Positions 7,786 to 60,658 of a stretch of DNA of 64,000 nucleotides are shown in pieces. Source of the DNA: Ischnura elegans (lineage: Eukaryota; Arthropoda; Insecta; Odonata; Coenagrionidae). Under the pieces are notes generated by a model. It made no database searches. It was not told the DNA's origin and was given only the letters and a program-made list of their open reading frames with translations. The position numbers and the translations under genes were made by a program. Position 1 is the first letter of the stretch, and every line of letters starts with the position of its first letter. The stretch covers positions 54,658,968 to 54,722,967 of the forward strand of contig NC_060257.1 in the NCBI RefSeq assembly GCF_921293095.1. The letters are read 5' to 3'.

Positions 7786-8074
7786 ATTATTAATATATTA
7801 AATAATTAATTAAAAAGGATATAAACGATTAATTGAAAAGGATATATAAATACTTGGAAATAACTTTAAAAGGATAAATATACATAATATTGTCCAGATT
7901 AAGAGTTATTACTACACTTCTGGAAGGGCTACAATTACAAGGACGAGTAACCTAAAATAATGGCTACTGGTGCTCAGATATCTCTATCTCTTGCATTTCC
8001 CGTGATCATTTTTAAATATGGATATTTAATGCAGAAATATTTTAATATCTAAAATGATTTTTTTCTCTTTCTCA
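7786..8074. other. Spacer before the dead protease exon
   Basis: AT-rich non-coding sequence matching 46556-46856. By its position it is the remaining intron upstream of the pseudogene exon that follows. No other exon of that gene is seen. Confidence 0.5.
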
Positions 8075-8221
8075 AGGTGATACTGGAGGCCCCCTTGTAC
8101 ATGAGGGAAAGCTAATAGGGATGGTGTCTTGGGGTCAACACTGCTAAAACTCGGATGACACTAGTTTACGCAGCCATTACACCAATCCGTGAATGGATGA
8201 GAAAACATCTGAATATCTAAT
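8075..8221 (+). pseudogene. Dead last exon of a trypsin-like protease, copy A
   Basis: The sequence reads G-D-T-G-G-P-L-V, then VSWGQHC and a TAA stop, then in a shifted frame VYAAITPIREWMRKH and a stop. This is the S1A active-site exon, with Thr in place of the catalytic Ser195. Lesions are the premature stop right after the Cys and a 2-base deletion relative to the copy at 46861. The 3' splice site has also decayed: the expected CAG is CAA, leaving only a shifted AG. No other exons of this gene are recognisable nearby, so it is an orphan exon carried in the duplicated spacer. It is more diverged from genes 1-3 than they are from each other. Confidence 0.85.
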
Positions 8222-12454: not shown

Positions 12455-12607
12455 TCACTTCTTCAAGCCAGTTTCCTTGGCTATGAATGCCTTCATTGAC
12501 GATACTTTGGCGTAAACTCCTGGGTATCCTCTTCCTCCGCAACCTAACCCCCAGGATACAATGCCGTACAGCTTATCATTGGTGACCACAGGACCACCAC
12601 TATCACG
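12455..12607 (-). CDS. Trypsin gene 1, last coding exon (active-site Ser)
   Basis: Encodes R-DSGGPVV through [18 protein letters not shown] to GLKK and TGA. The acceptor is CACAG. The first codon is CGT (Arg), where gene 2 has GGT. Confidence 0.92.
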   Translation of the reverse strand, partial: RDSGGPVVTNDKLYGIVSWGLGCGGRGYPGVYAKVSSMKAFIAKETGLKK

Positions 12608-15600
12608 CTGTGAGGGAATTGAGAGAATGATTTATCCATTCACCAAAAATCATTTAAAATCTCTATAAAATATCTCCAAGTATGGAATACCCTCAATACT
12701 ATTGCTAGCTAATACATGTGGACCAGACCAATCTAGGTAATTAGATTATTATGGTAAGGATAATAGTGACCATGAAAAATGTTGAATTATAATCTCAAAT
12801 GTAATGATTATGTATTTGAATATACCCCGCCATTATGCTTATATCATTACGTTGTTCTTTTTGTCCTTGTTTTGATGCATGTATTCCCTTCCGGTAAGTG
12901 TGTGCTTTCATGATAATGGTGGAATAAAGCTTTTTGAGAGTACGTGTCCGCTGTGCACAATAATTCTAAATATGTACAGCAAAACGTGCTTATAAGGATC
13001 ACGCATGTAAAGATATCCCGCCTATACTGAGGGTAGTTTCTGGTCTTTTAGACTTTGCTACGATAGCCTATGTTAATTTCACTGCATGTGTTGAGTTCTG
13101 ATGATAAAAAATCCCTGCAATTATGAACTATTCTTATTGGTCCCTCAAGGAATTATTTCCTCTTTTAAAAAGACATTAAGGCCATCTTTGATACTTAACC
13201 GTTCCTTACCTTATCACCGGTTGTTATCACATGTGGCTATCACCTCATAGTTCTACTGTAGATCTTAAAATTCTTCACTTTACTGCTGTTCAATGGAAAG
13301 GGTGGGACGATAGTTAATCATTACGAATCTATTGATACAATAAAGACGATTTATGGAATGTTAGCCAGCAATACCATGATGCGTAAGGCAAAATCCTTCA
13401 TTATGCATTTAAGAAAATCCCGTTTATAACAAAATGCAATGATGGTCCCCTGAAATTCGATATAAGTAAGATTTATTGTATTTAGCAAATATCTTAGTGC
13501 CTACATGTTTATGTGCTACCAAAAGCTTCAATGTTGACATTTAATACAATAGGGAAATTGCATACTTTTTATAAACAGTATGCTGATATACTACTGTAAA
13601 CACTTAGTACCGCAATATACTTTTTTCCGCTTAAAATTCAGTTTATACACTAGAAAATGACTCCCAAAAGTCTCCCGAGTTACGCGGGCTAAAAAATGCC
13701 GCCCCCACTATCTTTGGCCGTGACGTCATAGTTCAGTAGGAGTCAAAGATCCAAGCCCAGTAACTGCAGGTTTGGAAGAGCAACATTTCGTTTAAAGGAG
13801 AACATGGGTGAAACAAGGAAAAAATTACAAGTGGTGCATTGTTCCTTATCATTACGAATCTATTGCTACAATAAAGACGAGTTATGGAATATTAGCCGGC
13901 AATACTGTGATGCGTACGGCAAAATCCTTCATTATGCATTTAACAAAATCCCGTTTATAACAAAATGGAATGATGGTCCCCTGAAATTCGATATACGTAG
14001 TATTTATTGTATTTAGTAAATATCTTAGCGCCTATCTTCACGATGAGCTAGACTTATCATTTCAGCACAGGGTGTTAATGACATCTATTGTTGTACATTG
14101 GATGATGGTGCAATGCATTTTATTTGTAATATCAATTCCTTCACTGCAAAAATGCTGAATGTCCGCCCACTGAAACAAATCGGCTCATCTAGGAGCCCAA
14201 CAATACGAATGCTCTCGGCTGGCAGTAGCCGGAGCATAAACGCTCACCTCCAATTCTCCGCTACGGTATAATTATTGGGCTCCTAGATGAGCGGATTTGA
14301 TTTGGTAGGCGATTGCTGAGCCTTTGTGCAGTGAAGGTATCGATATGTTGTGAAGGCTTTAGCCCATGAAATAAATATATCATTTATTACTATAGAAGAT
14401 ATAAAGTATGTAAATTCAATTTACCTGACAAGCATCCTTGCCTCCTTCTTTCACTCCAGCGCAGAACATTTGATCTGTAATCCCGTTGGACGTTTTGTAA
14501 GCCAGAACACACTCATTCTGGTCATATACAGGGACTGTAACCTTCTGAAGGAATTTAGCGTTAGGGCCTTCTTCCTGAGGAAATGGAATTGTTCATCATT
14601 ATTTTAAGAGAGCATGTATAAACCAACATTGAAGAATTATTAAAAACTGAAGTTATCATCTTCAACATTGTAATGGTACCAAACCTCATCAAAATTTACC
14701 TTCATCTAAAGTTTTAAAATCTTGACTATGTTAAAATATTTGTTTGCTAAAAGTTTGCTAAAAATACATATTGAAATTTGGCATTCATGGGTTCAAATTG
14801 CGAACAACCATTGAAAATACTAATGCTTGAAAAATATATTGTAATTTTTTAATCAAACTTTAAACTAATGATGAAAACTTATTTAATTTCTCTATGGTGG
14901 TGTGCCATGGAACAGAAATAGTTATTATAAGTAGGGGTACCTACAGAGGATAGGAATTCAGAAGTACATATAAGCATGCATAGGCGGATCCAGGGGGGGG
15001 TGGGCATGCAAGATTTTTAATACGGTCCCATTATCATTGCGTTCGTTTTGTATTACGAGGTATTCTCGTGCCCCACCAAGGACAAAATCCTGGATACGGC
15101 CTTCCTTGTGCCCCTCCCACAAAAAAATCCTGGATCCGCCCCTGTAAGCATGGGTTTCTCAGGGCACTGTGCACTGAAACTTAGAAATATTCAGATTCAG
15201 GGGTGGTCTGGGGTGAGTGGGGAGTGGAGAATTTTTGATGCTATCCTGACTCATAAATACTAAATAAAAGTCAATAAAAAATCGCAATTTTGTAAGAAAA
15301 AAATTTGATTAAATTGAGAACTTAACAGCTTATAAGGTTTAACAATGAATTATGTTTCTACTATCTATTTAGTGACTTTGTTCCCTGAAAATGCACTGAA
15401 ATCTAAGAAAAACTCAAAAATAATCTATTGGAATAACTATTTCAAAATAGCATCACGATTACCTTTAATCTTCTCAGAGGCGTAGCCAGGAATTTCGTTC
15501 AGGTAAGGGGGAAAATTTTTGGAAAATAGTGCATTAAGTTATGAGTTTTAAACTAATTTTAACATTTTTCACTATCCAAAAAAACTTTATTTGTTAAAGA

Positions 15601-18600
15601 AATATTTTGTAAATTAATGATTTTTCAATATTTTGTTTTTTTTATGAGAGAAAATAATTGTGTTTCTGTATTTTGGAGGTGGGTCCGGACCCCCCAGAAC
15701 CCGCCTTCGCTGCGCCATTGATTCTTCAGACACCTTTATTTCATTTATTTTTTATATGATATTTTTACACTGAGTATGTTATAAATAAACCAACCGATAA
15801 AAATTTTGAATTTTATTATAGCAAAAAGAAATCCTTCAGTTCAAGTAATCTGAGTGTTTTTTTATTAAACTTTTTTATATATGCTTCATGAAAGATGGGA
15901 GTGTTGAGGGGGCCCTAAGTGATCACCCTCCAACCAACCTGAATAGACTGCACTTGTTCACATACCGATAAGTAACCCCATCCACTTATCACCACCATTG
16001 TCCCAGCATCCAGCTCCTCTCCTTCTGCAGGCAATGCAATAGGAGACACTGTACAACTGAAGACAAAAGGTGTTGAGACCTGTAATATGATATTAAATGA
16101 GATTTATTAATGCCTCTGAGGCTGTACCCCTTGAGAAAAAAAAACAAAAATTTTGTGTTAATATAATGAAAAAATTATTCATAAATTTATAAAATATTCA
16201 AAATTACAACAACATAAATTAACTCATGATGAAAGAACACAAATGGTAATTTCCACACTTTTTAACTCCAAAACTCAACAACGTACCATGGATTCATCAC
16301 ATAGTGTCATTTCAAAGTGAAAATGACACTACAAGTTGAAACCATGGTCGGTTGTTGAGTGTTGAATTTAAAAATGTGGAAAATTATCAATTGTGATCTT
16401 CACCATGGATATATTGAACTTCCACCAAATCAACTCAGAAACGCTTTTGTACGAATATAAACTAATACCCTAATACAATAAAATATACATTAATAAAATA
16501 CAATTAAATATAAATTATTGCAATATCCAAAATATTCACGACAAAATTATTAAAATTTCGAAAATCTTTATACTTAAAGATTAAAGTTTTAAAAAATATT
16601 CAGGAAATTATTTTAAAAAATTCGTCAGCATATGTTTTAAAGTAAAAAATAGCAGTTTGTACTAAGAGGGGCAGATCCAGGATTTTCTTCTGGGGGGGCA
16701 CAAGTATACCTTGTAATACAAAATGAACGCAATGATAATGGGACCGTATTAAAAATCTCGCATATTTTTAAAGGGTCAGGAAGGGGGGTACGAGCCCCCC
16801 CTAGATTCGTCTATGTGTACTAAAACACTATTATTAAATATGGAAATACAACTAACAAAAAGCAAAATAAACAAAAAATTAGTGGTCTTATAGTAACATA
16901 TTTTAATAAATATATTTAACCCATATAGCTATAGAGAAACAAAAAATTACCTTGAGTACAGCCATATCCCAGTCTATGGTGGCTGGATCAAAATTGGGGT
17001 GTACACTGAATTTACTTACATCATAAATGTCCCCCTCGTCAACGTCAAGAGAACCAGCCATGAGCTGCAGGCTATAGTGACCCACACTGAAAGGTAATTA
17101 TTGCCCACAATTGCATGAAGGATTCCATTCAGGCACTATAGTTATCCTGTACCTTTTATGTTCAAAGAAAAAAATGCCAGTTAGGAAGAACGTGGGTGGT
17201 TCACTATTATTTTAATCTATGGTAATGAAGAGTGAAAAATTAAGGGAAAAGTAATAGTCCATTTTATGATCCACCAGATGGAAGGATCCATTGGATTTAA
17301 GAAGCCGAGATACCAACAAAGGAAGCAGAAAGATATAAATCATCAGTAGAATAGTGCAGGCAAAGAGGGCTTTCTACAAAAAGAAGAATCTCCTTACACC
17401 TGACAGTAAAAGCGTAGAAGTAAGGAAATAATTCATCACATCCTGTATATAGCAGGTGCAGAGCTAGGAATTAAGGCTAGGGGGGGATTTAGGAGAAGCA
17501 AATACTGGGGGATATGCAATAAGGGAGGTGCGGGTGCCCTCCCCCAGAAATTATTAAGATAAATAGCTCAAAATTTTGAGTTTAACGGCTTTCTGAGGAA
17601 TATTTTATTCTTACACCATTGTATAAGTTAAATTTATCCAATTCAGTAAAATGTATTAAATTTAAAAATTTCACTGAGTTCTGGGGAGGGGGGTTTATCC
17701 CCAAAAAATACCCATCACTGCGCCACTGATACATAAAGCATGTTTCTCTAAAGGAGCAAGGATTGAATATGCTATTGGCTTCTAGGTCTCTCCTGTCCAG
17801 CCGCCAATAGTCAGGAAAAAGGTAAAGAAGGCAGGCACAGTAGTTCTCAATATACGAACAATAGGCAATCCGAGATCTTGTTCGTACGTTGAAAAAACCT
17901 AGGCAATTGCTCGGAAAGTGTAGTTATCCTGCAACATGCAACACTGCATAACAATTGTGATGGTGACGAACTGATCTTTCTGCGCTTGGCTGGAGCCGAA
18001 AAAATTTCGCTGCGTAAATAACGAAGATTGGGCGAAACGCTCAACAGTTCTCGACTTCACAACGGTTTAGACGGCATTCATTAATTAGGTGAGTCTTTTG
18101 GGGAGGGGGTTCAGCCGATTCTCACTCCATCTCACATTGGGGAGAGGGGGCAAGTGTCACGTAATTTTTTTCCGCAAGAATCAGTGTAAAATGTGATTAT
18201 AGGCTATGATCTTAGTTATCTTAAATACTAGCCTTAACTTATCTTACATAAAAATGGCAAATGGAATTGTTTTTTTATTAAGGGGGGGCAGCTGACCCCT
18301 CCTGACCCCCGCTGGGAACGCCCATAGTCACTGCTGCGAATTCTTCCGTTCCAGCAAAGCAACACAGTATTTTTTTGCGCCTATGACGTGATACCTACGT
18401 CACGGCCATTGGATAGGAGTTTCTGTCTCTCGTTGATACTCACTAGAGAAGGCAGTGTGCGGCAGTCACGGCCCAGTCTTCGCTCAAGATGGATGCACCA
18501 CAGATGTGATATCCGCCTATTCTCAAGGAGAGCTGAAAGATGGAACAGGAGAAATTGGACACGAGGTCAAATACATGGAGAAAATATGGTTTAAACATGC

Positions 18601-20838
18601 AGATTTAAATAAATTAAATAAAAAAAACGGCAGGGCTTCCGCAGTGACGCAGCCAGGAATATTCTTCGGGGCGGGAATCTTAAACCAGGGTTGAACCAGG
18701 GGAGTTCGTGGGAAAACTTTTGAATATCAGGGAACTTAGTAGAGTGTTTTAAACTAATTTAAACACTTTTTACAATCGGAAAAAAACTACATTTTATAAA
18801 ATATTTTGTTAATATATAATAAGTTCTCAAGAAGTTATTGTGTTTTTATATTTCCGGGGGGGGGGGGGGGGGACAGGGTCGGAACCTCCCTCAATGTACC
18901 AATGGCTCTGTGGATGGTTTCCACTTTTGGCCATAAAACCAAAACTAGGTCATATAACCAAAACTCGAACCTTCCGAAATTGCACGACAATGCCGGTCAT
19001 AAAAATATTCTAAACCGATCATAGCTATTAGTAGAATTGAGTGTAGAGCTGCGTAAAACCAATCTTAGGATCGTTGACCAGTGATGATAATGATGATCTT
19101 AGTCGTGGGCGTACCCAGCGAGGGGCAGGAGGGGGCAGCTGCCCTCCCCAGAAACAAAAATTGCATATGTTTTTAAGGAAAATAATGTTTTTTCAACCAA
19201 ATCATTTTAAAAACTAATATGGAGCTGTTACAGTTTTCTTAAAATGTCGATTTCATTCACCTTTTCCATGCTTAAATCTTACCTATAACTTGACCAACCA
19301 TGGTTTGCCACCCCCCCCCCCCCCAAGTTTTGATCCTAGGTGTTCCCTTGATCTCATTCCTTACCTGGTAAGGGAACTCTCCGGGGGCTGCATCCTCCCC
19401 ACCAACGATTCTCCTGTCAAGTGGCGGTCGCCCATTGAGCACTCGGAAGCCTTGGTAAAGAATAAGACGAATGATGTTGATAAAAGAGTGAGATGAATAA
19501 GTGGGGTTACTAGGAATATGCCTTGGGGGGGATGGGATGTCCTGAGTTGGCGACCCCCTCCCCGACGGGCAAAATCTGGCAAACGTTTTGAAAAATGACA
19601 TGCCTGGAAATACAATTAACATCACTTTGGCTTTTAAAGATTGAACTTAAAGCAGATGCAGTTGTTAGGTGTCAAAATTAGACAATAGCTTTAAATATTA
19701 TTTGTTATTTATCTGAGGCTTTTCGGGGGGGATCGACTCCCTCACCCCCCCATAGTTACGCCACTGAGACGAATAATGTTGACAAGCAGGGCCAGCCTGC
19801 CTGTTCCACAGCCAAGTTGACTCTGCTGCGGTACCCGTTGCAGCCTTGTCACCTGTCGTTGTTGCACTGTTGACTGCCATAGTGTTGCACCCAGTGGCGT
19901 AGCCAGGGGGGATACGCGGGGTCCGGACACCCCCCGAAATAATGAAAGCACAATTATTTTCCTTCATAGAAGAAATCAAAATGTAGAAAAATCATGAATT
20001 TACCAAATATTTCTTTAACAAATTATTTTTTCGATTATGAAAAGTGTTAAAATTAGTTTATACTGTGTACACCGTAAGTTGGCGCACGGGTCCGCGAAAT
20101 ACCAGAGACGCGAGCAAAGGAGGGTAGGAAAGGACCGACAAATAAACTGTACAGGAACGACACAGGTAGTTGGCGGGTCCGTTCGCCCGTCCCTTTCCTC
20201 CCCCCGACGAAGGCAACTAGCACCTCTAATAGAATTATTAACATCTTTTACTTTCTCATAAAATCTCAATCTAAATAGCATATTTTTAAAGTACTAAAAA
20301 AGCTGAGACGAATGATATAAAACACGAAGTGCTCGTATCATAAATAACGAAATGGTCGAAAGTTATTTTTTAGCCGTTGTACTGTATGTTTTGTTTATAC
20401 TTTCGACCATTTCGTTATTTATGGTCGGAGCACTTCGTGTTTTATATATAATTCTTCTTCGTGTTTCAAATTTTATAAAAGAAAAATACCAAAAAAGTTT
20501 ATTTGAAGTAGAAAATACAAGATGCATCCGGGTCGTGTATATGAAATATCAGGTAAAAATTATAAATGTATTTCAAAAACGCATTTTAAAATACTTATAA
20601 TTTGAATACTGCCCAGCCCTGCAAAAATCGCAAGCAGACATTTTTCTTGCCGGAAATGGGTTACGAGAGAAATCCGTCGCGCAAATACACAAAAATTACA
20701 CAAAACACGACCGGTAAAGTGTGAGTTATGGGTGCTCTCAATGTCTGCACATCTATCTACAAGTAAATGTTTTTTTAGGTACTCACTCGAAGCGCTGGCT
20801 ATAACAGCCAATACGATGACCGCTGTAGTCGCATTCAT
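12455..20838 (-). CDS. Trypsin gene 1, complete, with Arg193
   Basis: Secreted trypsin-like serine protease zymogen (S1A), 259 residues from seven coding exons whose GT-AG junctions and phases join without a break: join(complement) 20838-20787, 19450-19365, 18532-18444, 17086-16951, 16079-15966, 14574-14425, 12607-12455. Residues 1-17 ([17 protein letters not shown]) are a signal peptide. A 14-residue propeptide ends DRR before IVGG (32-35). The triad is His72 in TAAHC, Asp116 in WDMAVL, and Ser212 in DSGGP. Asp206 is at chymotrypsin position 189, and the glycines of the S1 pocket (SWG and PGVY, Gly239) are kept, so cleavage after Lys/Arg is predicted. Residue 193 is Arg (CQRDSGGP) instead of the oxyanion-hole Gly, as in human mesotrypsin. 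The usual pairs 42-58, 168-182 and 191-220 are present, plus one extra Cys130. The start ATG was chosen because the first ATG of gene 2 is GTG here. A digestive role is likely but not shown. Confidence 0.9.
13316..14033. repeat. Direct repeat pair of about 190 bp
   Basis: Two diverged copies (13316-13505, 13848-14033) sharing TTCATTATGCATTTAA and CCCCTGAAATTCGATATA. Gene 3 has one copy, so this is either a local duplication in gene 1 or a loss in gene 3. Confidence 0.7.
14138..14337. mobile_element. MITE with ~90-bp inverted termini, copy in gene 1
   Basis: A 200-bp foldback element bounded by CCTTCACTGCA and TGCAGTGAAGG. Its long arms contain CTCATCTAGGAGCCCAA and the complement. It is present at the same place in gene 2 (40646-40844) and gene 3 (55785-55983), so it predates the duplications. 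Confidence 0.75.
14425..14574 (-). CDS. Trypsin gene 1, coding exon 6
   Basis: Encodes 50 residues, [19 protein letters not shown] to [11 protein letters not shown], phase 0 at both ends. It includes Cys168/Cys182 and the specificity residue Asp189 (residue 206). Confidence 0.92.
14979..15144. mobile_element. hAT-type MITE, unique to gene 1
   Basis: A 166-bp element with inverted ends CATAGGCGGATCCAGGG and CCTGGATCCGCCCCTG and a perfect 8-bp duplication TAAGCATG (14971-14978, 15145-15152). Gene 3 has an empty site near 56605. It inserted after the genes 1/3 duplication. Confidence 0.88.
15478..15721. mobile_element. G-rich MITE (GGCGTAGCC family), gene 1
   Basis: Bounded by AGAGGCGTAGCCAGG and a degenerate inverted end CGCCATTGA. 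Imperfect duplications (CTTCTCAG / ATTCTTCAG) flank it. Counterparts are at about 39452-39705 in gene 2 and 59058-59291 in gene 3. Confidence 0.6.
15966..16079 (-). CDS. Trypsin gene 1, coding exon 5
   Basis: Encodes [19 protein letters not shown] to [11 protein letters not shown] (38 residues), phase 0 at both ends. It includes the conserved GWG segment and an extra Cys that is Ser in gene 2. Confidence 0.92.
16254..16382. repeat. Foldback element in gene 1 intron
   Basis: Imperfect stem-loop of about 130 bases with arms of about 60 bases. The loop side contains AGTGTCATTTC / GAAAATGACACT. Equivalents are at about 38795-38925 (gene 2) and 59820-59955 (gene 3). Confidence 0.65.
16666..16815. 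mobile_element. hAT-type MITE shared by all three genes
   Basis: A 150-bp element, ends GAGGGGCAGATCCAGG and CCTAGATTCGTCTATG, with 8-bp duplication TGTACTAA (16658-16665, 16816-16823). In gene 2 the same element (35881-38505) is split by the Penelope-like element; in gene 3 it is at about 60239-60390. Confidence 0.8.
16951..17086 (-). CDS. Trypsin gene 1, coding exon 4 (Asp102)
   Basis: Starts with the last base of a split Tyr codon, then encodes [11 protein letters not shown] to [12 protein letters not shown] (45 residues), phase 0 at its 3' end. It contains the catalytic Asp (residue 116). It is two codons shorter than the gene 2 exon. Confidence 0.92.
17087..18443 (-). other. Trypsin gene 1 intron with G-rich insert
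   Basis: Non-coding. A G-rich MITE-like segment lies at about 17453-17735, and a further repeat around 18060-18330 is mirrored in gene 2 (about 33900-34600). In gene 3 a 2.85-kb Harbinger-like element interrupts the segment matching 17300. Confidence 0.6.
18444..18532 (-). CDS. Trypsin gene 1, coding exon 3 (His57)
   Basis: Encodes [19 protein letters not shown] through [10 protein letters not shown] and two bases of the next codon, followed by donor GTGAGTATC. It contains the catalytic His (residue 72) and the Cys42-Cys58 pair. Confidence 0.92.
18533..19364 (-). other. Trypsin gene 1 intron with homopolymer tracts
   Basis: Non-coding. It carries a poly-G run at about 18857-18871 and a poly-C run at about 19310-19324, inside G-rich MITE-like sequence shared with the mirrored intron of gene 2. 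Confidence 0.6.
19365..19450 (-). CDS. Trypsin gene 1, coding exon 2 (activation site)
   Basis: Two bases complete the split Ser codon, then [13 protein letters not shown] and [15 protein letters not shown] follow, phase 0 at the 3' end. Cleavage after the second Arg would activate the zymogen. The donor is GTAAGG. Confidence 0.92.
19499..19766 (-). mobile_element. hAT-type MITE (CAGTGGCGTAA family) in gene 1
   Basis: A 268-bp element starting CAGTGGCGTAACTATGG on the minus strand with a decayed right end. Near-identical 8-bp flanks AGATGAAT (19491-19498) and AGACGAAT (19767-19774) are seen. The mirror copy is in gene 2 (about 32490-32765) and a relative is at 61663-61905. Confidence 0.65.
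19767..20786 (-). other. Trypsin gene 1 intron 2, remainder
   Basis: Contains another CAGTGGCGTAGCC-ended repeat from 19892 to about 20300 and the foldback 20314-20448. Both are mirrored in gene 2 (about 31970-32371 and 31814-31948). No coding signal is seen. Confidence 0.6.
20314..20448. repeat. Foldback element, gene 1
   Basis: Arms with ATATAAAACACGAAGTGCTC and TAACGAAATGGTCGAAAGT meet around a loop of about 30 bases. The mirror copy is at 31814-31948. Confidence 0.75.
20787..20838 (-). CDS. Trypsin gene 1, coding exon 1 (signal peptide)
   Basis: Encodes [17 protein letters not shown] plus the first base of a Ser codon, followed by donor GTGAGT. The transcribed exon begins at 20899 after a TTTTTTCATAG acceptor, so the 5'UTR is split by a long first intron. 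Confidence 0.88.
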
Positions 20839-31352: not shown

Positions 31353-41455
<10,103 letters not shown>

Positions 41456-46206: not shown

Positions 46207-46860
46207 CATTTGTTGAGGTTTTCACTCATCCAGTTCTCGCTTACAAAGGTATATGACTGTAAATGTGTTATCAAGTAGTATATGACCATATATACATTGT
46301 ATGGATATGATCATATTATGAGATGGAGTATCCCTGCATGCTGTGGTCAAGCCCTCCTGTACGATTCACAAAGCTCATTCAGTGATTGGTACTTGATTTT
46401 TTCTTCATTATTTTTCATTCTTATTTAATTTAAATAGGAGTCCCTGCCCCCTCCCTCATGACTACCTGTGATCTAAAATATGTATATGGGACTTTTAGTT
46501 TACACTTGTTGTTCCAGCCGTTACCTAAAAATTATATGTAGGTACCAACCTACGTATATTATTAATATATTAAATAATAAATTAAAAAGGATATAAACGA
46601 TTTCCTAATTGAAAAGGACATATAAATACTTGGAAATAACTTTAAAAGGATAAATATACATAATATTGTCCAGATTAAGAGTTATAACTACACTTCTGGA
46701 AGGGCTACAATTACAAGGACGAGTAACCTAAAATAAAGGCTACGGGTGCTCAGATATCTCTATCTCTTGCATTTTCCATGATGACATGATCATTTTAAAA
46801 TATGGATATTTAATGCAGAAATATTTTAATAACTAAAATGATTTTTTTCTTATTCTCAGG

Positions 46861-47004
46861 ATGATACTGGAGGCCCCCTTGTACATGAGGGAAAGCTAAT
46901 AGGGATGGTGTCTTGGGGTCAACGCTGCCAAAACTCGGACGACACTGTAGTTTACGCAGCCATTGCACCAATCCATAAATAGATAAGAAAACATCTGAAT
47001 ACAT
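46861..47004 (+). pseudogene. Dead last exon of a trypsin-like protease, copy B
   Basis: After a TTCTCAG acceptor it reads DDTGGPLVHEGKLIG, then MVSWGQRCQNSDDTVVYAA and IAPIHK, then a TAG stop, then IRKHLNT and TAA. It is the S1A active-site exon with Thr for Ser195 and Asp for Gly193. The internal stop differs from the lesion in copy A (8075-8221), and the copy A frameshift is absent. Both copies share the Thr, so this substitution predates the duplication. The other exons are not found in the window. Confidence 0.85.
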
Positions 47005-54168: not shown

Positions 54169-54321
54169 TCACTTCTTCAAGCCAGTTTCCTCGGCTATGA
54201 ATGCCTTCATTGACGATACTTTGGCGTAAACTCCTGGGTATCCTCTTCCTCCGCAACCTAACCCCCAGGATACAATGCCGTACAGCTTATCATTGGTGAC
54301 CACAGGACCACCACTATCACG
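54169..54321 (-). CDS. Trypsin gene 3, last coding exon
   Basis: Encodes R-DSGGPVV to IAEETGLKK and TGA. Arg at position 193 is shared with gene 1, so the change predates their duplication. Confidence 0.9.
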   Translation of the reverse strand, partial: RDSGGPVVTNDKLYGIVSWGLGCGGRGYPGVYAKVSSMKAFIAEETGLKK

Positions 54322-57300
54322 CTGTGAGGGAATTGAGAGAATGATTTATCCATTCACCAAAAATCATTTAAAATCTCTATAAAATATCTCCAAGTATGGA
54401 ATACCCTCATGACTATTGCTAGCTAATACATGTGGACCAGACCAATCTAGGTAATTAGATTATTATGGTAAGGATAATAGTGACCATGAAAAATTTTGAA
54501 TTATAATCTCAAATGTAATGATTATGTATCTGAATATCCCCCGCCATTATGCTTATATTATTACGTTGTTTTTTTTGTCCTTGTTTTGATGCATGTATTC
54601 CCTTCTGGTGAGTGTGTGCTTTCATGATAATGGTGGAATAAAGCTTCTTGAGAGTAAGTGTCCGCTGGGTACAATAATTCTAAATACGTACAGCAAAACA
54701 TGCTTATAAGGATCACGCCTATACTGAGGGTAGTTTCTGGTCTTTTGGACTTTGCTACGATAGCCTATGTTAATTTCCCTGCATGTTTTGAGTTCGGATG
54801 CTAAAAAATCCCTGCTATTACGAAATATTCTTTGGTCCCTTGAGGAATTATTTCCTCTTTTAAAAAGACATTAAGGCCACCATTGATACTTAACCGTTCC
54901 TTACCTTATCACCGGTTGTTATCACATGTGGATATCACCTCATAGTTCTACTGTAGATCTTAAAATTCTTCCCTTTACTGCTGTTTAATGGAAAAGGTGG
55001 GACAATAGTTAATCATTACGAATCTATTGCTACAATAAAGACGATTTATGGAATATTAGCCGGCAAAACTGTGATGCGTATGGCAAAATCCTTCATTATG
55101 CATTTAACAAAATCTCGTTAATTACAAAATGGAATAATGATCCCCTGAAATTCGATATAAGTAAGATTTATTGTATTTAGTAAATATCTCAGTGCCTACA
55201 TGTTTATGTGCTTCCAAAAGCTTCAAAGCTGACATTTCATACAATTTTTCAAGTTCAAATCTGAAAGGGTGAATGGTAATTAATTGGACCAGACCAATCT
55301 AATTAGATTATTATGGTAAGGATAGTAATGACCATGAAAAACTTCATTTGTCAAAGAGAAAATTAAGAGAAATATAAATTCTGAATTTAAGACGCATTTA
55401 TGGCCAATACAACAGCACCCATATTGACAAAAGCATTAAAATACTATTGTGCATATACTGATAATAATATGTATGACAAAAAAAATTAAAAGTCTGAAAC
55501 TTCCAAACAATTTTTCATTCAGTAAACCCCCACCAAGAGCCATGCTCAAGGAAAATACAACTTGTTTCTCAGGGTGGGTGCATAAAATCAATATATAAAT
55601 TATGTAATTAATAAATACATTTTTACCTATGTTTGCATTCACCATGAGGCACTAGTATGAAATGCACAATTTGGTATCAGAAGTTCACGATGAGCTGGAC
55701 TTGTCATTTCAGCACAGGGTGTTAATGACATCTATTGTTGTACATTGGATGATGGTGCAATGCATTTTATTTGTAATATCAATTCCTTCACTGCAAAAAT
55801 GCTCAATGACCGCCCACTGAAACAAATCCGCTCATCTAGGAGCCCAACAATACGAATGCTCTCAGCTGGCAGTAGCCGGAGCATAAACGCTCACCTCCAA
55901 TTCTCTGCTACGATATTATAATTGGGCTCCTAGATGAGCGGATTTGATTCGGTAGGCGATTGCTGAGCCTTTGTGCCGTGAAGGTATCGTTATGTTGTAA
56001 AGGCTTTAGCCAGTGAAATAAATATATCATTTATTACTATAGAAGATATAAAGTATCTAAATTCAATTTACCTGACAAGCATCCTTGCCTCCTTCCTTCA
56101 CTCCAGCACAGAACATTTGATCTGTAATCCCGTTGGACGTTTTGTAAGCCAGAGCACACTCATTCTGGTCATATACAGGGACTGTAACCTTCTGAAGGAA
56201 TTTAGCGTTAGGGCCTTCTTCCTGAGGAAATGGAATTGTTCATCATTATTTTAAGAGAGCATCTATAAACCAACATTGAAGAATTGTTAAAAACTTGAGT
56301 TATCATCTTCAACATTGTAATGGTACCAACCCTCATCAAAAGTTACATCATCTAAAGTTTTAAAATCTTGACTATGTTAAAATATTTGTTTGCTAAAAAT
56401 ACATATTGAAATTTGGCATTCATGGGTTCAAATTGCGAACAACCATTGAAAATACTAATGCTTGAAAAATATATTGTAATTTTTTAATCAAACTTTAAAC
56501 TAATGATGAAAACTTATTTAATTTCTCTATGGTGGTTTGCCGTGGAACAGAAATAGTTATTATAAGTAGGGGTACCTACTTAGGATAGGAACTCAGAAGT
56601 ACATATAAGCATGGTTTCTCAGAGCACTGTGCACTGAAACTTAGAAATTCAGTAGAATCCTGATTTAAGGTTTTTCAGCGGGGACACAATTTAAAACACT
56701 AAATGAGGACCTGCCATTTTTTTCAGGTTTTAGGGTCTGTAATGATTGGAATGGCTTTTTATGAATAAAAAATATTATTTGAAGTAACTAAAAGTTGCTG
56801 CATGCAGCAACAAATTCATTGATTAAATGTTATTTGCCGAATTAAGGTTGAATAATACTTTTCAGGAATCAGCTAAAAAAATGGGTAGTAAAAATAAGTA
56901 ATGAGAGGATAACAATGGTTTTAATGAAATATTTTAAGAAAATTCTAATAAACGTCAACTTAAAAGCATTCCCACACAGATTATTATTATGGAAATTAGT
57001 GTTTCCATTTTACGCATATTTCAGTGGCCTCGAAGAAAATTTAAAATTTTTTCTGTAAAAGTGACATGTAGGTGACTATAGCATTTCTAATATAATAAAA
57101 AAGGTGTAAGTAGGTACTCGAAAAATTCGTCATTGCATCAATGAAGATGAGTGAAATAAAGGGACAGCAGAAGATCGCTAATCCCGAATTCTTAACTACC
57201 GAATATCTAGGAAAAGGGAGATTTACTGGAATTTTGCCAATTTAACGTTTTCTGTTGCCTCGGCGAAACGAGCGATTTATGAGCCTCCTGTGCGCACATT

Positions 57301-60300
57301 TTGGATTTCGAGGCCATCCAAAAATGGAGAATCTTTTTTCTAGTATGCGTACAAGTCGATGGTGATTCAACTCGATGACAACACCAGATTCGTTGTCATA
57401 TCCGCGGCCTCATACAGGACGAATGGAGCCGGGAGAAGTTGCTTAGGTACGCGGCGCGCTGATCAACTTGACTCCGACTCACCGTTTCTCGGCAGCTTTT
57501 AATAAAATTTGGTTGGACCTTGAATAACGATTAGCTAAACTCTGTTAAGTGAAAAGTTTTAATCTTCAATAGAACTGGATTTCATCTGAAAAATTGTCAG
57601 TGCCTCCGGAGTTTGTCAATTTCGTCCGAGTTATGATGTCGCAGTCTTGAAAATTTAATGAAAAAGTCTTGAAAGTTTAATAAAAAAATAAACCACCAAG
57701 GGATTTCTGGACCTGCTGGATTTTCGTATTTTTCCGCGCTCATCTATTTTACCGTGGTTATGCGGTTATTTTTTTCAGCATGAGCGATTTATTTAGAGTC
57801 ATGGACCGTGATAGTTCGTCAAAACTCCGATGTTCATTCGCTTTTCACATAAAATAGCACCAGATAAATATCTTTGAACCGGCAGCGATATCAACCAGCC
57901 GCATGTCGGTATATGGGCTCCGGGATATCTAAATTACGATGTAAAATAATGTTGTTCCGGAGGGAAAGAATGCTCTCACTTACGGTCATGACAGGGGAAA
58001 CACTTCCTCTGTTCTTTCGCTGTTCCACCGTGGAAACTGACCTTGGAATGGATTATAAAAAGAATCTTCTAGTGAACTGCGCAAATGATATTGGGCCTCT
58101 TTTGAAAAGAGAAAGTAGCCGACTGGAAAAATATTGGGCTAACAATGGACTACCCGTAGAGAGTAGAGTTGAAAGGGGCATAAGCCGTCAATTGTAAACA
58201 TTACGAGGAAACCATCATTGTAGCGGCCCTCGGAGTATAACTCGGGTCATCAGTCGTCACGTATCATCGAAGTTCACGAAGTGAAGGATAAGGTAGTTAG
58301 AGGTTATTTAGGGATGAATTTGCTCCATTAGATCGGATCTCATATAAAAAGTGTCTGGTGTTTGGATCAGAAGGGGAGCGAAATATTACGAGAAGACAAA
58401 TCACCTAGCTTGCGAGTTGAAGGTCCCAGCGCTGCATTCGCGGAAGAAAGCAGTTGAAGAAGCGTTCCCCGGTAGATTCTATTGACTCTTGGTAAACTTT
58501 CATGAGACTGTTCTTGTTGATGAGCATAAATTCGAAGATTTGGATAATCATTTGCATGAGCCGTCATGAAAAAACGTTAAATCGGGCAAAAAAATCTTGT
58601 GCGGGAAAAATTTTTACGAGCATAAATGCGAAAAAACGCTAAATGCGGAAACACTAAATACGGATAATTTTAAATTGCCCTTATAGGGAATGAATCGGGA
58701 CCCTAAAAAATAAACGCTAAATGTGGAAAAACGTTAAATGCGAAGACGTTAAATCCGGATCCGACTGTATTCAGATTCAGGGGTGGTCTGGGGTGAGTGG
58801 GGAGTGGAGAATTTTTGATGCTATTCTGAATCATAAAAACTAAATAAAAGTCAATAAAAAATCGCAATTTTGTAAGAAAAAATATTTTTAAAATTCAGAA
58901 CTTAACAGCTTATATAGTTTAACAATGAATTATGTTTCTTCTATCTATTAAGTGAATTTGTTCCCTGAAACTGCACTGAAATCTAAGAAAACCTCAAAAA
59001 TAATCTATACGAATAACCATTTCAAAATAGCATCACGATTACCTTTATTCTTCTCAGAGGCGTAGCCAGGGATTTCGTTCAGGTGAGGGGGGAAAAGTTT
59101 TGGAAAATAGTGCACTAATAATGGGTTTTAAACTAATTTTAACATTTTTCACTATCCAAAAAACTTTATTTGTTAAAGAAATATTTTGTAAATTAATGAT
59201 TTTTCAATATTTTCTTTTTATATGAGAGAAAATAATTGTGTTTCTGTATTTTGGAGGTGGGTCCGGACCCCCCCCCTAGCTACGCCATTGATTCTTCAAC
59301 CACCTTCATTTTATTTTTTTTATATGATATTTTTACACTGAGTATTTTATAAATAAACCAACTGATAAAAATGTTGAATTTTATAATAGCAAAAAGAAAA
59401 CCTTCAGTTCAAGTAATCTGAGTGTTTTTTATTAAACTTTTTTATATATGCTTCATGAAAGATGGGAGTGTTGAGGGGGCCCTAAGTTAGGATCACTCTC
59501 CAGCCAACCTGACCACACTGCACTTGTTTACATACCGATAAGTAACCCCATCCACTTATCACCACCATTGTCCCAGCATCCAGCTCCTCTCCTTCTGCAG
59601 GCAATGCAATAGGAGACACTGTACAACTGAAGACAAAAGGTGTTGAGACCTGTAATATGATAGAAATGAGATTTATTAATGGCTCTGAAGCTGTACCCCT
59701 TTGAGAAAAAAACACAAATATTTTGTGTTAATATAATGAAAAAAGTATTGATAAATTTATAAAATATTCTAAATTACAACAACATAAATTAACTCATGAT
59801 GAAAGAACACAAATGGTAATTTCCACTCTTTTTAGCTCCAAAAATCAACAACGTACCATATGGATTCATCACATAGTGTCATATCAAAGTGAAAATGACG
59901 CTACATGTTGAAACCATAGTCGGTTGTTGAGTGTTGAATTAAAAAATGTGGAAAATTATCAATTGTGATCTTCACCATGGATATATTGAACTTCCACCAA
60001 ATCAACTCAGAAACGCTTTTGTACGAATATAAACTAATACCCTAATACAATAAAATATACATTAATAAAATACAATTAAATATAAATTAATGCAATATCC
60101 AAAATAGTCACGACAAAATTATTTAAATTTCGAAAATCTTTGTACTTATAGATTAAAGTTTTTTAAAATATTCAGGAAATTATTTAACAAAAATTCGTCA
60201 GCATAAGTTTTAAAGTAAAAAATAGCAATTTGTACTAACAGGGGCGGATCCAGGTTTTTCTTCTGGGGGGCACAAGTATACCTCGTAATACAAAATGAAC

Positions 60301-60658
60301 GCAATGATAATGGGAACGTATTAAAAATCTTGCATATTTTTTAAGGGTCAGGGAGGGAGGCACCAGCCCCCCCTAGATTCGTCTATGTGTACTAAAACAC
60401 AATTATTAAATATGCAAATACAACTAACAAAAAGCAAAATAAACAAAAAATTAGTGGACTTATAGTAACATATTTTAATAAATATATTATACCCATATAG
60501 CTATAGAAGAACAAAAAATTACCTTGAGTACAGCCATATCCCAGTCTATGGTGGCTGGATCAAAATTGGGGTGTACACTGAAATAACTTACATCATAAAT
60601 GTCCCCCTCGTCCACGTCAAGAGAACCAGCCATGAGCTGCAGGCTATAGTGACCCACA
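54169..60658 (-). CDS. Trypsin gene 3, 3' four exons, with Arg193
   Basis: Partial S1A protease: join(complement) 60658-60523, 59649-59536, 56221-56072, 54321-54169. Same exon lengths, phases and splice sites as gene 1, and nearly the same protein. It includes the catalytic Asp (DWDMAVL), Asp at 189 (GGKDACQ), Arg at 193 (RDSGGP) with catalytic Ser, and PGVY with Gly226. Differences from gene 1 are few, such as SYFSVHP for SKFSVHP, ECALAY for ECVLAY and IAEETG for IAKETG. All visible exons are open. The exons for the signal peptide, activation site and His57 must lie right of 64000. The introns carry a Tigger-like (56650-58767) and a Harbinger-like (60881-63731) element not in gene 1. Intact frames suggest a working gene, if the missing exons are intact. 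Confidence 0.88.
54322..56071 (-). other. Trypsin gene 3 intron before the last exon
   Basis: Matches 12608-14424, but with one copy of the 190-bp repeat and a different block at about 55250-55690 that includes sequence also found in gene 2 (about 40870-41220). MITE at 55785-55983. Non-coding. Confidence 0.65.
55785..55983. mobile_element. MITE with long inverted termini, copy in gene 3
   Basis: Same insertion as 14138-14337 and 40646-40844. Confidence 0.72.
56072..56221 (-). CDS. Trypsin gene 3, coding exon 6
   Basis: Encodes [19 protein letters not shown] to [11 protein letters not shown]. Asp at specificity position 189 is kept. Confidence 0.9.
56650..58767 (+). mobile_element. Tigger/pogo-like DNA transposon, complete, in gene 3 intron
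   Basis: A 2.1-kb insertion with ends CAGTAGAATCCTGATTTAA and, inverted, CAGTCGGATCCGGATTTAA at a TA target (TT on the left by mutation). The site is empty in gene 1 (about 15190). A subterminal array of AAATGYGGAAAA-ACGTTAAAT-like repeats lies at 58624-58760. Open frames (longest 107 codons at 57874) show no recognised transposase, so it is probably non-autonomous. It is homologous to 1-1742. Confidence 0.78.
59058..59291. mobile_element. G-rich MITE (GGCGTAGCC family), gene 3
   Basis: Same insertion as 15478-15721; its ends, AGAGGCGTAGCCAGG and CCTAGCTACGCCATTGA, are better preserved here. Confidence 0.62.
59536..59649 (-). CDS. Trypsin gene 3, coding exon 5
   Basis: Encodes [19 protein letters not shown] to [11 protein letters not shown], as in gene 1, with the extra Cys. 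Confidence 0.9.
60239..60390. mobile_element. Shared hAT MITE, copy in gene 3
   Basis: Starts CAGGGGCGGATCCAGG, the best-preserved end of this family, and ends at TCGTCTATG with TGTACTAA flanks. Same insertion as 16666-16815. Confidence 0.78.
60523..60658 (-). CDS. Trypsin gene 3, coding exon 4 (Asp102)
   Basis: Encodes [11 protein letters not shown] to [12 protein letters not shown], starting with the last base of a codon split by the intron, as in gene 1. Confidence 0.9.

What the first reader, a model, noticed from the sequence alone, without database searches (positions are those of the whole stretch)
12605..12607. Arg at position 193 in genes 1 and 3, as in mesotrypsin
Both genes read CQRDSGGP where almost all S1A proteases have CQGDSGGP. 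Human mesotrypsin (PRSS3) carries exactly this Gly193Arg change, which makes it resistant to and able to degrade canonical trypsin inhibitors. An independent arthropod case with Asp189 retained would suggest selection by dietary or endogenous protease inhibitors. The codon is the first of the last exon, CGT against GGT in gene 2, and both copies share it.
Basis: partly seen in the sequence, partly recalled or inferred. Interest (0 to 1): 0.85.

Follow-up and report, generated by a model that had tools for sequence, protein, structure and literature searches.

The report
Damselfly trypsins with arginine 193
A small group of trypsin genes in a damselfly has swapped a nearly invariant glycine beside the active site for arginine, the same swap that makes one human trypsin resist trypsin inhibitors, so the damselfly enzymes may have reached inhibitor resistance independently, which has not been tested.

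Summary
Window 12605-12607 (- strand) is CGT, first codon of the last exon of an intact seven-exon trypsin gene reading CQ|RDSGGP, with His57, Asp102, Ser195 and Asp189 kept. Gene 3 reads the same; its first three exons lie beyond the window. A third, complete copy lies about 570 kb away. The three form one group (support 96), so this is one substitution followed by duplication. No other Arg193 protease exon was identified in the genome, though five pattern matches stayed unread. The copies' proteins are conserved although their introns differ by up to 6%. Gene 2 is a poor control: it has Asn189, Asn192 and Ile226. A better Gly193 partner has its last exons at C12:54759-54762 kb. The mesotrypsin reading is partly supported: Arg193 is shared, but residues 39, 74 and 97 are not mesotrypsin's (recalled), selection statistics are not significant, and Gly193 is also replaced by Asp, Ser and Ala in other proteases of this genome. 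Best reading: a convergent Arg193 trypsin, probably less sensitive to canonical inhibitors; the selective agent is unknown and expression unshown.

The parts
20787..20838 (-). gene 1 exon 1 (start codon, signal-peptide-like stretch by eye)
   Evidence: spliced model
19365..19450 (-). gene 1 exon 2 (activation site DRR|IVGG)
18444..18532 (-). gene 1 exon 3 (His57, AAHC)
16951..17086 (-). gene 1 exon 4 (Asp102, DWDMAVLK)
15966..16079 (-). gene 1 exon 5
14425..14574 (-). gene 1 exon 6, ends GGKDACQ (Asp189, Ala190, Gln192)
12455..12607 (-). gene 1 exon 7, starts with Arg193 (CGT 12607-12605), Ser195, stop
60523..60658 (-). gene 3 exon 4
   Evidence: exon 3 read at C12:54723840-54723990, exons 2 and 1 matched up to C12:54730710, all beyond the window
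59536..59649 (-). gene 3 exon 5
56072..56221 (-). gene 3 exon 6, ends GGKDACQ
54169..54321 (-). gene 3 exon 7, starts with Arg193 (CGT 54321-54319)
31359..31410 (+). gene 2 exon 1
32808..32893 (+). gene 2 exon 2
33695..33783 (+). gene 2 exon 3
35603..35744 (+). gene 2 exon 4
39094..39207 (+). gene 2 exon 5
40409..40558 (+). gene 2 exon 6, ends GKNSCN (Asn189, Ser190, Asn192)
41303..41455 (+). gene 2 exon 7, GDSGGP (Gly193) but Ile226

Best explanation
Genes 1 and 3 and a third copy encode secreted-type trypsins of an amplified gene cluster in this damselfly. One G-to-C change turned Gly193 (GGT) into Arg (CGT) in their common ancestor. Shown: intact genes, catalytic triad, Asp189 pocket, Arg193, single origin, protein conservation after duplication. 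Inferred: the enzyme still cleaves after Arg/Lys, and the Arg193 side chain fills the prime-side subsite next to the oxyanion hole, so that canonical inhibitors bind weakly or are cut, as in mesotrypsin. That inhibitors (from prey or its own tissues) selected for it is a guess.
For: Seven-exon intact models for gene 1 and the third copy, and exons 3-7 of gene 3 in frame. Pfam Trypsin 216.9 bits over all 220 model positions for gene 1. Catalytic residues and pocket by alignment to bovine trypsin. Arg193 group separated from 9 Gly193 relatives with support 96 in a 12-sequence tree of exons 6-7. Arg193 copies differ pairwise by 2-6 nonsynonymous and 3-4 synonymous changes (dN/dS 0.20, 0.39, 0.44; gene 3 by exons 3-7 only) while introns 4-6 of gene 3 differ from those of the other two by 3.8-5.9% in well-aligned blocks. 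Papers, passages read: Gly193-to-Arg in human trypsin-1 confers trypsin-3-like inhibitor resistance (PMC8609519); Arg193 is a major contributor to resistance (PMC5413004); bound Kunitz inhibitors push Arg193 into a buried conformation (PMC6158287).
Against: No assay or transcript evidence. Residues 39, 74 and 97 are not those recalled for mesotrypsin. Position 193 is changed in other proteases of the same genome, to Asp, Ser and Ala, so change here need not mean inhibitors. The excess of amino acid change between Arg193 genes and gene 2 type (dN/dS 1.5-1.7) is not significant in the two pairs tested (Fisher p 0.28 and 0.25), and against the 54246 gene the ratio is 0.84-1.01. The small counts behind the low dN/dS within the Arg193 group prove little, and gene conversion may contribute.
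Confidence: 0.5

Rival explanations
1. Arg193 is one of many changes around the substrate cleft (189, 190, 192, 193, 216, 217, 221-223, 226) by which this cluster diversifies substrate preference; Arg193 alters prime-side preference, and inhibitors are irrelevant.
For: Across 12 members, residues 189 D/N, 190 A/S, 192 Q/N/H, 193 R/G, 216 G/A, 217 L/I/R/K, 221a G/E/Q/K, 223 G/E and 226 G/I vary. The Arg193 genes also have their own 217 and 221a.
Against: Clustering of variable residues at the cleft is not significant (11 of 23 against 26 of 77, p 0.23; exon 7 alone 8 of 19 against 6 of 31, p 0.11). It does not exclude inhibitor resistance as a by-product.
Confidence: 0.3
2. Arg193 damages the oxyanion hole; the genes make weak or inactive enzymes kept by drift, dosage or a non-catalytic role.
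For: Gly193 is normally highly conserved and implicated in stabilising the oxyanion (PMC2967472 passages; PMC5413004). KLK10 with Ser193 showed no activity on synthetic substrates in a study cited there. Neighbouring exon copies with Thr195 and stops show decay in the cluster.
Against: Triad and pocket intact, no stop or frameshift in two full models, protein better conserved than introns. Mesotrypsin with Arg193 and mouse KLK13 with Asp193 are active (passages).
Confidence: 0.15
3. Artefact: an assembly duplication or sequencing error.
For: Most of the block with genes 1 and 2 is 98-99% identical to one about 570 kb away.
Against: Arg193 is in three copies whose intron 6 differs pairwise by 3.8-5.9%, much for one locus assembled thrice; the assembly is long-read and curated, with 25 haplotypic duplications removed (PMC9975421 section 5). 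Read depth was not available.
Confidence: 0.03

Closest known systems
Human mesotrypsin (PRSS3, trypsin IV; PDB 1h4w, 5tp0)
   Same: S1A trypsin, Asp189, Gln192, Arg193; printed alignments identical over [10 protein letters not shown]
   Different: Positions 39, 74, 97 differ (mesotrypsin residues recalled); Ala190 against Ser190; arises inside an insect gene cluster
Crayfish hepatopancreas trypsin (PDB 2f91; crayfish recalled)
   Same: Best whole-chain match among 556 solved-structure sequences, E 3.4e-55
   Different: Has Gly193 in the printed alignment
Gly193-substituted proteases: viper venom serine proteases (Phe, Val, Thr, Ala), KLK10 (Ser), mouse KLK13 (Asp)
   Same: Replacement of Gly193 in duplicated gene families, suggested to lower inhibitor sensitivity for bulky residues in vipers (PMC3123349, PMC2967472; passages)
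   Different: None of these is Arg193

Membership tests
S1A trypsin | trypsin domain over full length | tested here: met
   Pfam PF00089, 216.9 bits, positions 1-220 of 220, gene 1
S1A trypsin | catalytic triad His57, Asp102, Ser195 | tested here: met
   [17 protein letters not shown] in the alignment to bovine trypsin
S1A trypsin | Asp189, Gly216, Gly226 pocket | tested here: met
   met for genes 1 and 3 and the third copy; not for gene 2 (Asn189, Ile226)
S1A trypsin | Arg/Lys specificity in an assay | not testable with these tools
   needs enzyme
Mesotrypsin-type inhibitor-resistant trypsin | Arg193 | tested here: met
   CGT at 12607-12605 and 54321-54319, third copy likewise
Mesotrypsin-type inhibitor-resistant trypsin | Ser39, Lys74, Asp97 (recalled from Alloy et al. 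2015; only its title seen, in a reference list; text not held) | tested here: not met
   Tyr39, Asp74, Ala97 by alignment to bovine trypsin, numbering recalled
Mesotrypsin-type inhibitor-resistant trypsin | resists and cleaves canonical inhibitors | not testable with these tools
   needs inhibitor assays

The most novel reading that the evidence does not exclude
A predatory insect evolved its own mesotrypsin: one Gly193Arg change in a digestive trypsin, amplified to three genes and held by selection, gives enzymes that destroy protease inhibitors of prey, by convergence with the human enzyme.
Probability: 0.22. Interest if true: 0.7.

Novelty: new member of a known kind. Interest (0 to 1): 0.4.

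Why it matters
If the damselfly enzymes resist inhibitors, position 193 would be a repeatable route to inhibitor resistance in animals as far apart as insects and people, and the cluster offers a natural set of closely related enzymes with Gly193 and Arg193 for testing it. It also matters for reading protease clusters: gene 2 shows that a GDSGGP motif does not make a gene the ordinary trypsin control.

Tried and rejected
Independent origins in genes 1 and 3: rejected, one clade of three. A first tree and residue count held one sequence shifted by a codon; both were corrected and rerun.

Other Arg193 proteases in the genome: a pattern without an intron gave six matches against nine for the reversed control. 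Three were read (C9:112681751, C12:18362469, C4:51613301) and none reads on as a protease. Of the other three, two do not code Ser at 195 and C1:119995950 was not read. Of the five Arg matches with TCN serine one was read (the same C9 site); C2:10656302, C6:116028945, C8:19362349 and C19:25905652 were not, nor was a Ser193 match at C4:131749464. None of the five unread Arg sites lies within 100 kb of a trypsin hit listed, which scored 150 of 514 candidates. The patterns would miss genes with other intron places or an altered DSGGP.

Significant positive selection or cleft clustering: not found. Structure prediction was not run, since spliced proteins may not count as the window's own letters. 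Relatives in other odonates could not be sought: no other insect genome is held. Literature: the listings (no paper), several of them showing only the top of longer lists, showed no arthropod Arg193 trypsin; I opened passages of five protease papers (on one of them again). The library is open-licence only, so this is weak.

Full report
What and where. The window is G000:C12:54658968-54722967 of a 1,722,721,009-base, 110-contig assembly. Its contig 12 is 94,743,817 bases, exactly the N90 chromosome length printed for Ischnura elegans ioIscEleg1.1, which has 110 scaffolds and a 94.74-Mb chromosome 12 (PMC9975421, section 5 read); the printed total, 1,722,763,890, is 42,881 bases larger than here. 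So the host is a blue-tailed damselfly, a predator (habit recalled).

Observation. Gene 1, on the - strand, splices from seven exons with GT-AG borders into 259 residues: a signal-peptide-like start, activation site DRR|IVGG, trypsin domain, stop. Exon 6 ends TGT CAG and exon 7 begins CGT GAT AGT, giving CQ|RDSGGP. Gene 3 has the same junction; its exon 3 reads in frame at C12:54723840-54723990, and the next upstream matches to exons 2 and 1 lie at 54729132-54729217 (98%) and 54730606-54730710 (96%), outside the window and not read. Gene 2 has GGT there.

How many, and how often. A third Arg193 gene, complete, lies at C12:54102332-54110744. A pattern for acceptor, Arg or Ser, D, Ser(AGY), GGP gives just these three in the genome. 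With any residue at 193 the two serine forms give 31 and 67 matches; residue 193 reads Gly in 83 of 98, Arg in 8, Asp 2, Ser 2, Ala 1, Lys 1, Pro 1 (counted), where reversed-pattern controls give 5 and 4 matches. Of the 8 Arg matches three are this family, one was read and is chance, four were not read; a fifth unread Arg match comes from the intron-free pattern. Exons with another residue that look like real proteases: Asp at C2:121648716 and Ser at C3:133273189, both reading on as protease (L067, L068), and Ala at C10:72866138, which coincides with a Trypsin family hit. So loss of Gly193 has happened several times in this genome, but Arg193 was identified in one clade only.

History. In a tree of exons 6 and 7 of 12 cluster members, the three Arg193 genes are separated from nine Gly193 genes with support 96 (two of the exon 6 sequences lack two or three codons). 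All three chromosome 7 relatives have GGT (two were read). Gene 1 and the third copy have identical exons 1-5 and introns 2-5 at 99.2-99.9% identity (intron 1 98.0%), while intron 6 is 95.2% identical; gene 3 is 94-96% identical to both in introns 4-6 (identity over gap-free blocks of at least 40 columns and over 75% identity). The mixture suggests later conversion or exchange between copies. Nonsynonymous to synonymous ratios among Arg193 copies are 0.20, 0.39 and 0.44 on 5, 7 and 10 changes; between Arg193 genes and the gene 2 type they are 1.5 to 1.7, and against the 54246 gene 0.84 to 1.01. Fisher tests on two of the gene 2 pairs do not support an excess (p 0.28, 0.25).

Residues. Gene 2 and its two copies (one found only as exons 5-7) have Asn189, Ser190, Asn192, Gly193, Ile226, so they are unlikely to be trypsins in specificity, and comparing gene 1 with gene 2 would confound several changes. 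The gene with last exons at C12:54759-54762 kb, with Asp189, Ala190, Gln192 and Gly193, is the better partner; only its exons 6 and 7 were read, and it still differs from gene 1 there by 12 nonsynonymous changes.

Mechanism. In print, Arg193 of mesotrypsin is described as a major contributor to resistance and to cutting inhibitors (PMC5413004, passages), Gly193Arg in trypsin-1 confers resistance (PMC8609519, passage), and inhibitor binding forces Arg193 into a buried conformation (PMC6158287, passages). From this I infer lowered sensitivity to canonical inhibitors here. The residues recalled as completing the mesotrypsin phenotype (39, 74, 97) are absent, so full inhibitor destruction is less likely than simple resistance. 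Substrate diversification is the main rival, since other cleft residues vary too. Who makes the inhibitors, and whether the genes are expressed, cannot be seen here.

Verdict. A real, single-origin Arg193 trypsin lineage, convergent with mesotrypsin at one residue; a new member of the known set of Gly193-substituted proteases, worth a simple assay.

Noticed in passing
window 36376-38271 (+): Open 631-aa frame with a reverse transcriptase domain (Pfam RVT_1, 49.8 bits) in intron 4 of gene 2; intron 4 of gene 2 and of its copy have near-equal length and 99.8% identity, so it probably precedes that duplication. Looks like a Penelope-type element (recalled).
   Followed up: partly
window 8073-8144 (+) and 46857-46964 (+); L034 at 9470: Last-exon copies reading QGDTGGP or QDDTGGP, with Thr at 195; both window copies run into stops, the L034 copy is open. 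A possible non-catalytic homologue line in the cluster.
   Followed up: no
C12:54080-54130 kb and window 11.9-46.3 kb: Blocks 94.7-99.1% identical, about 570 to 620 kb apart; the largest carry the Arg193 / Ile226 gene pair.
   Followed up: partly
C12:54747-54749 kb (L021): Relative with an exon 6 almost like gene 3's but ending GKNSCN as in gene 2: a mosaic.
   Followed up: no
C2:121648716 and C49:100470; C3:133273189; C10:72866138: Other protease-like exons with Asp, Ser or Ala at position 193; the C49 match has the same 20 letters as C2 and was not read further.
   Followed up: partly
window 16053-16055 and gene 3 exon 5: Genes 1 and 3, the third copy and the 54246 gene have an extra cysteine (FSCTV) where gene 2 has serine; no partner was sought.
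   Followed up: no
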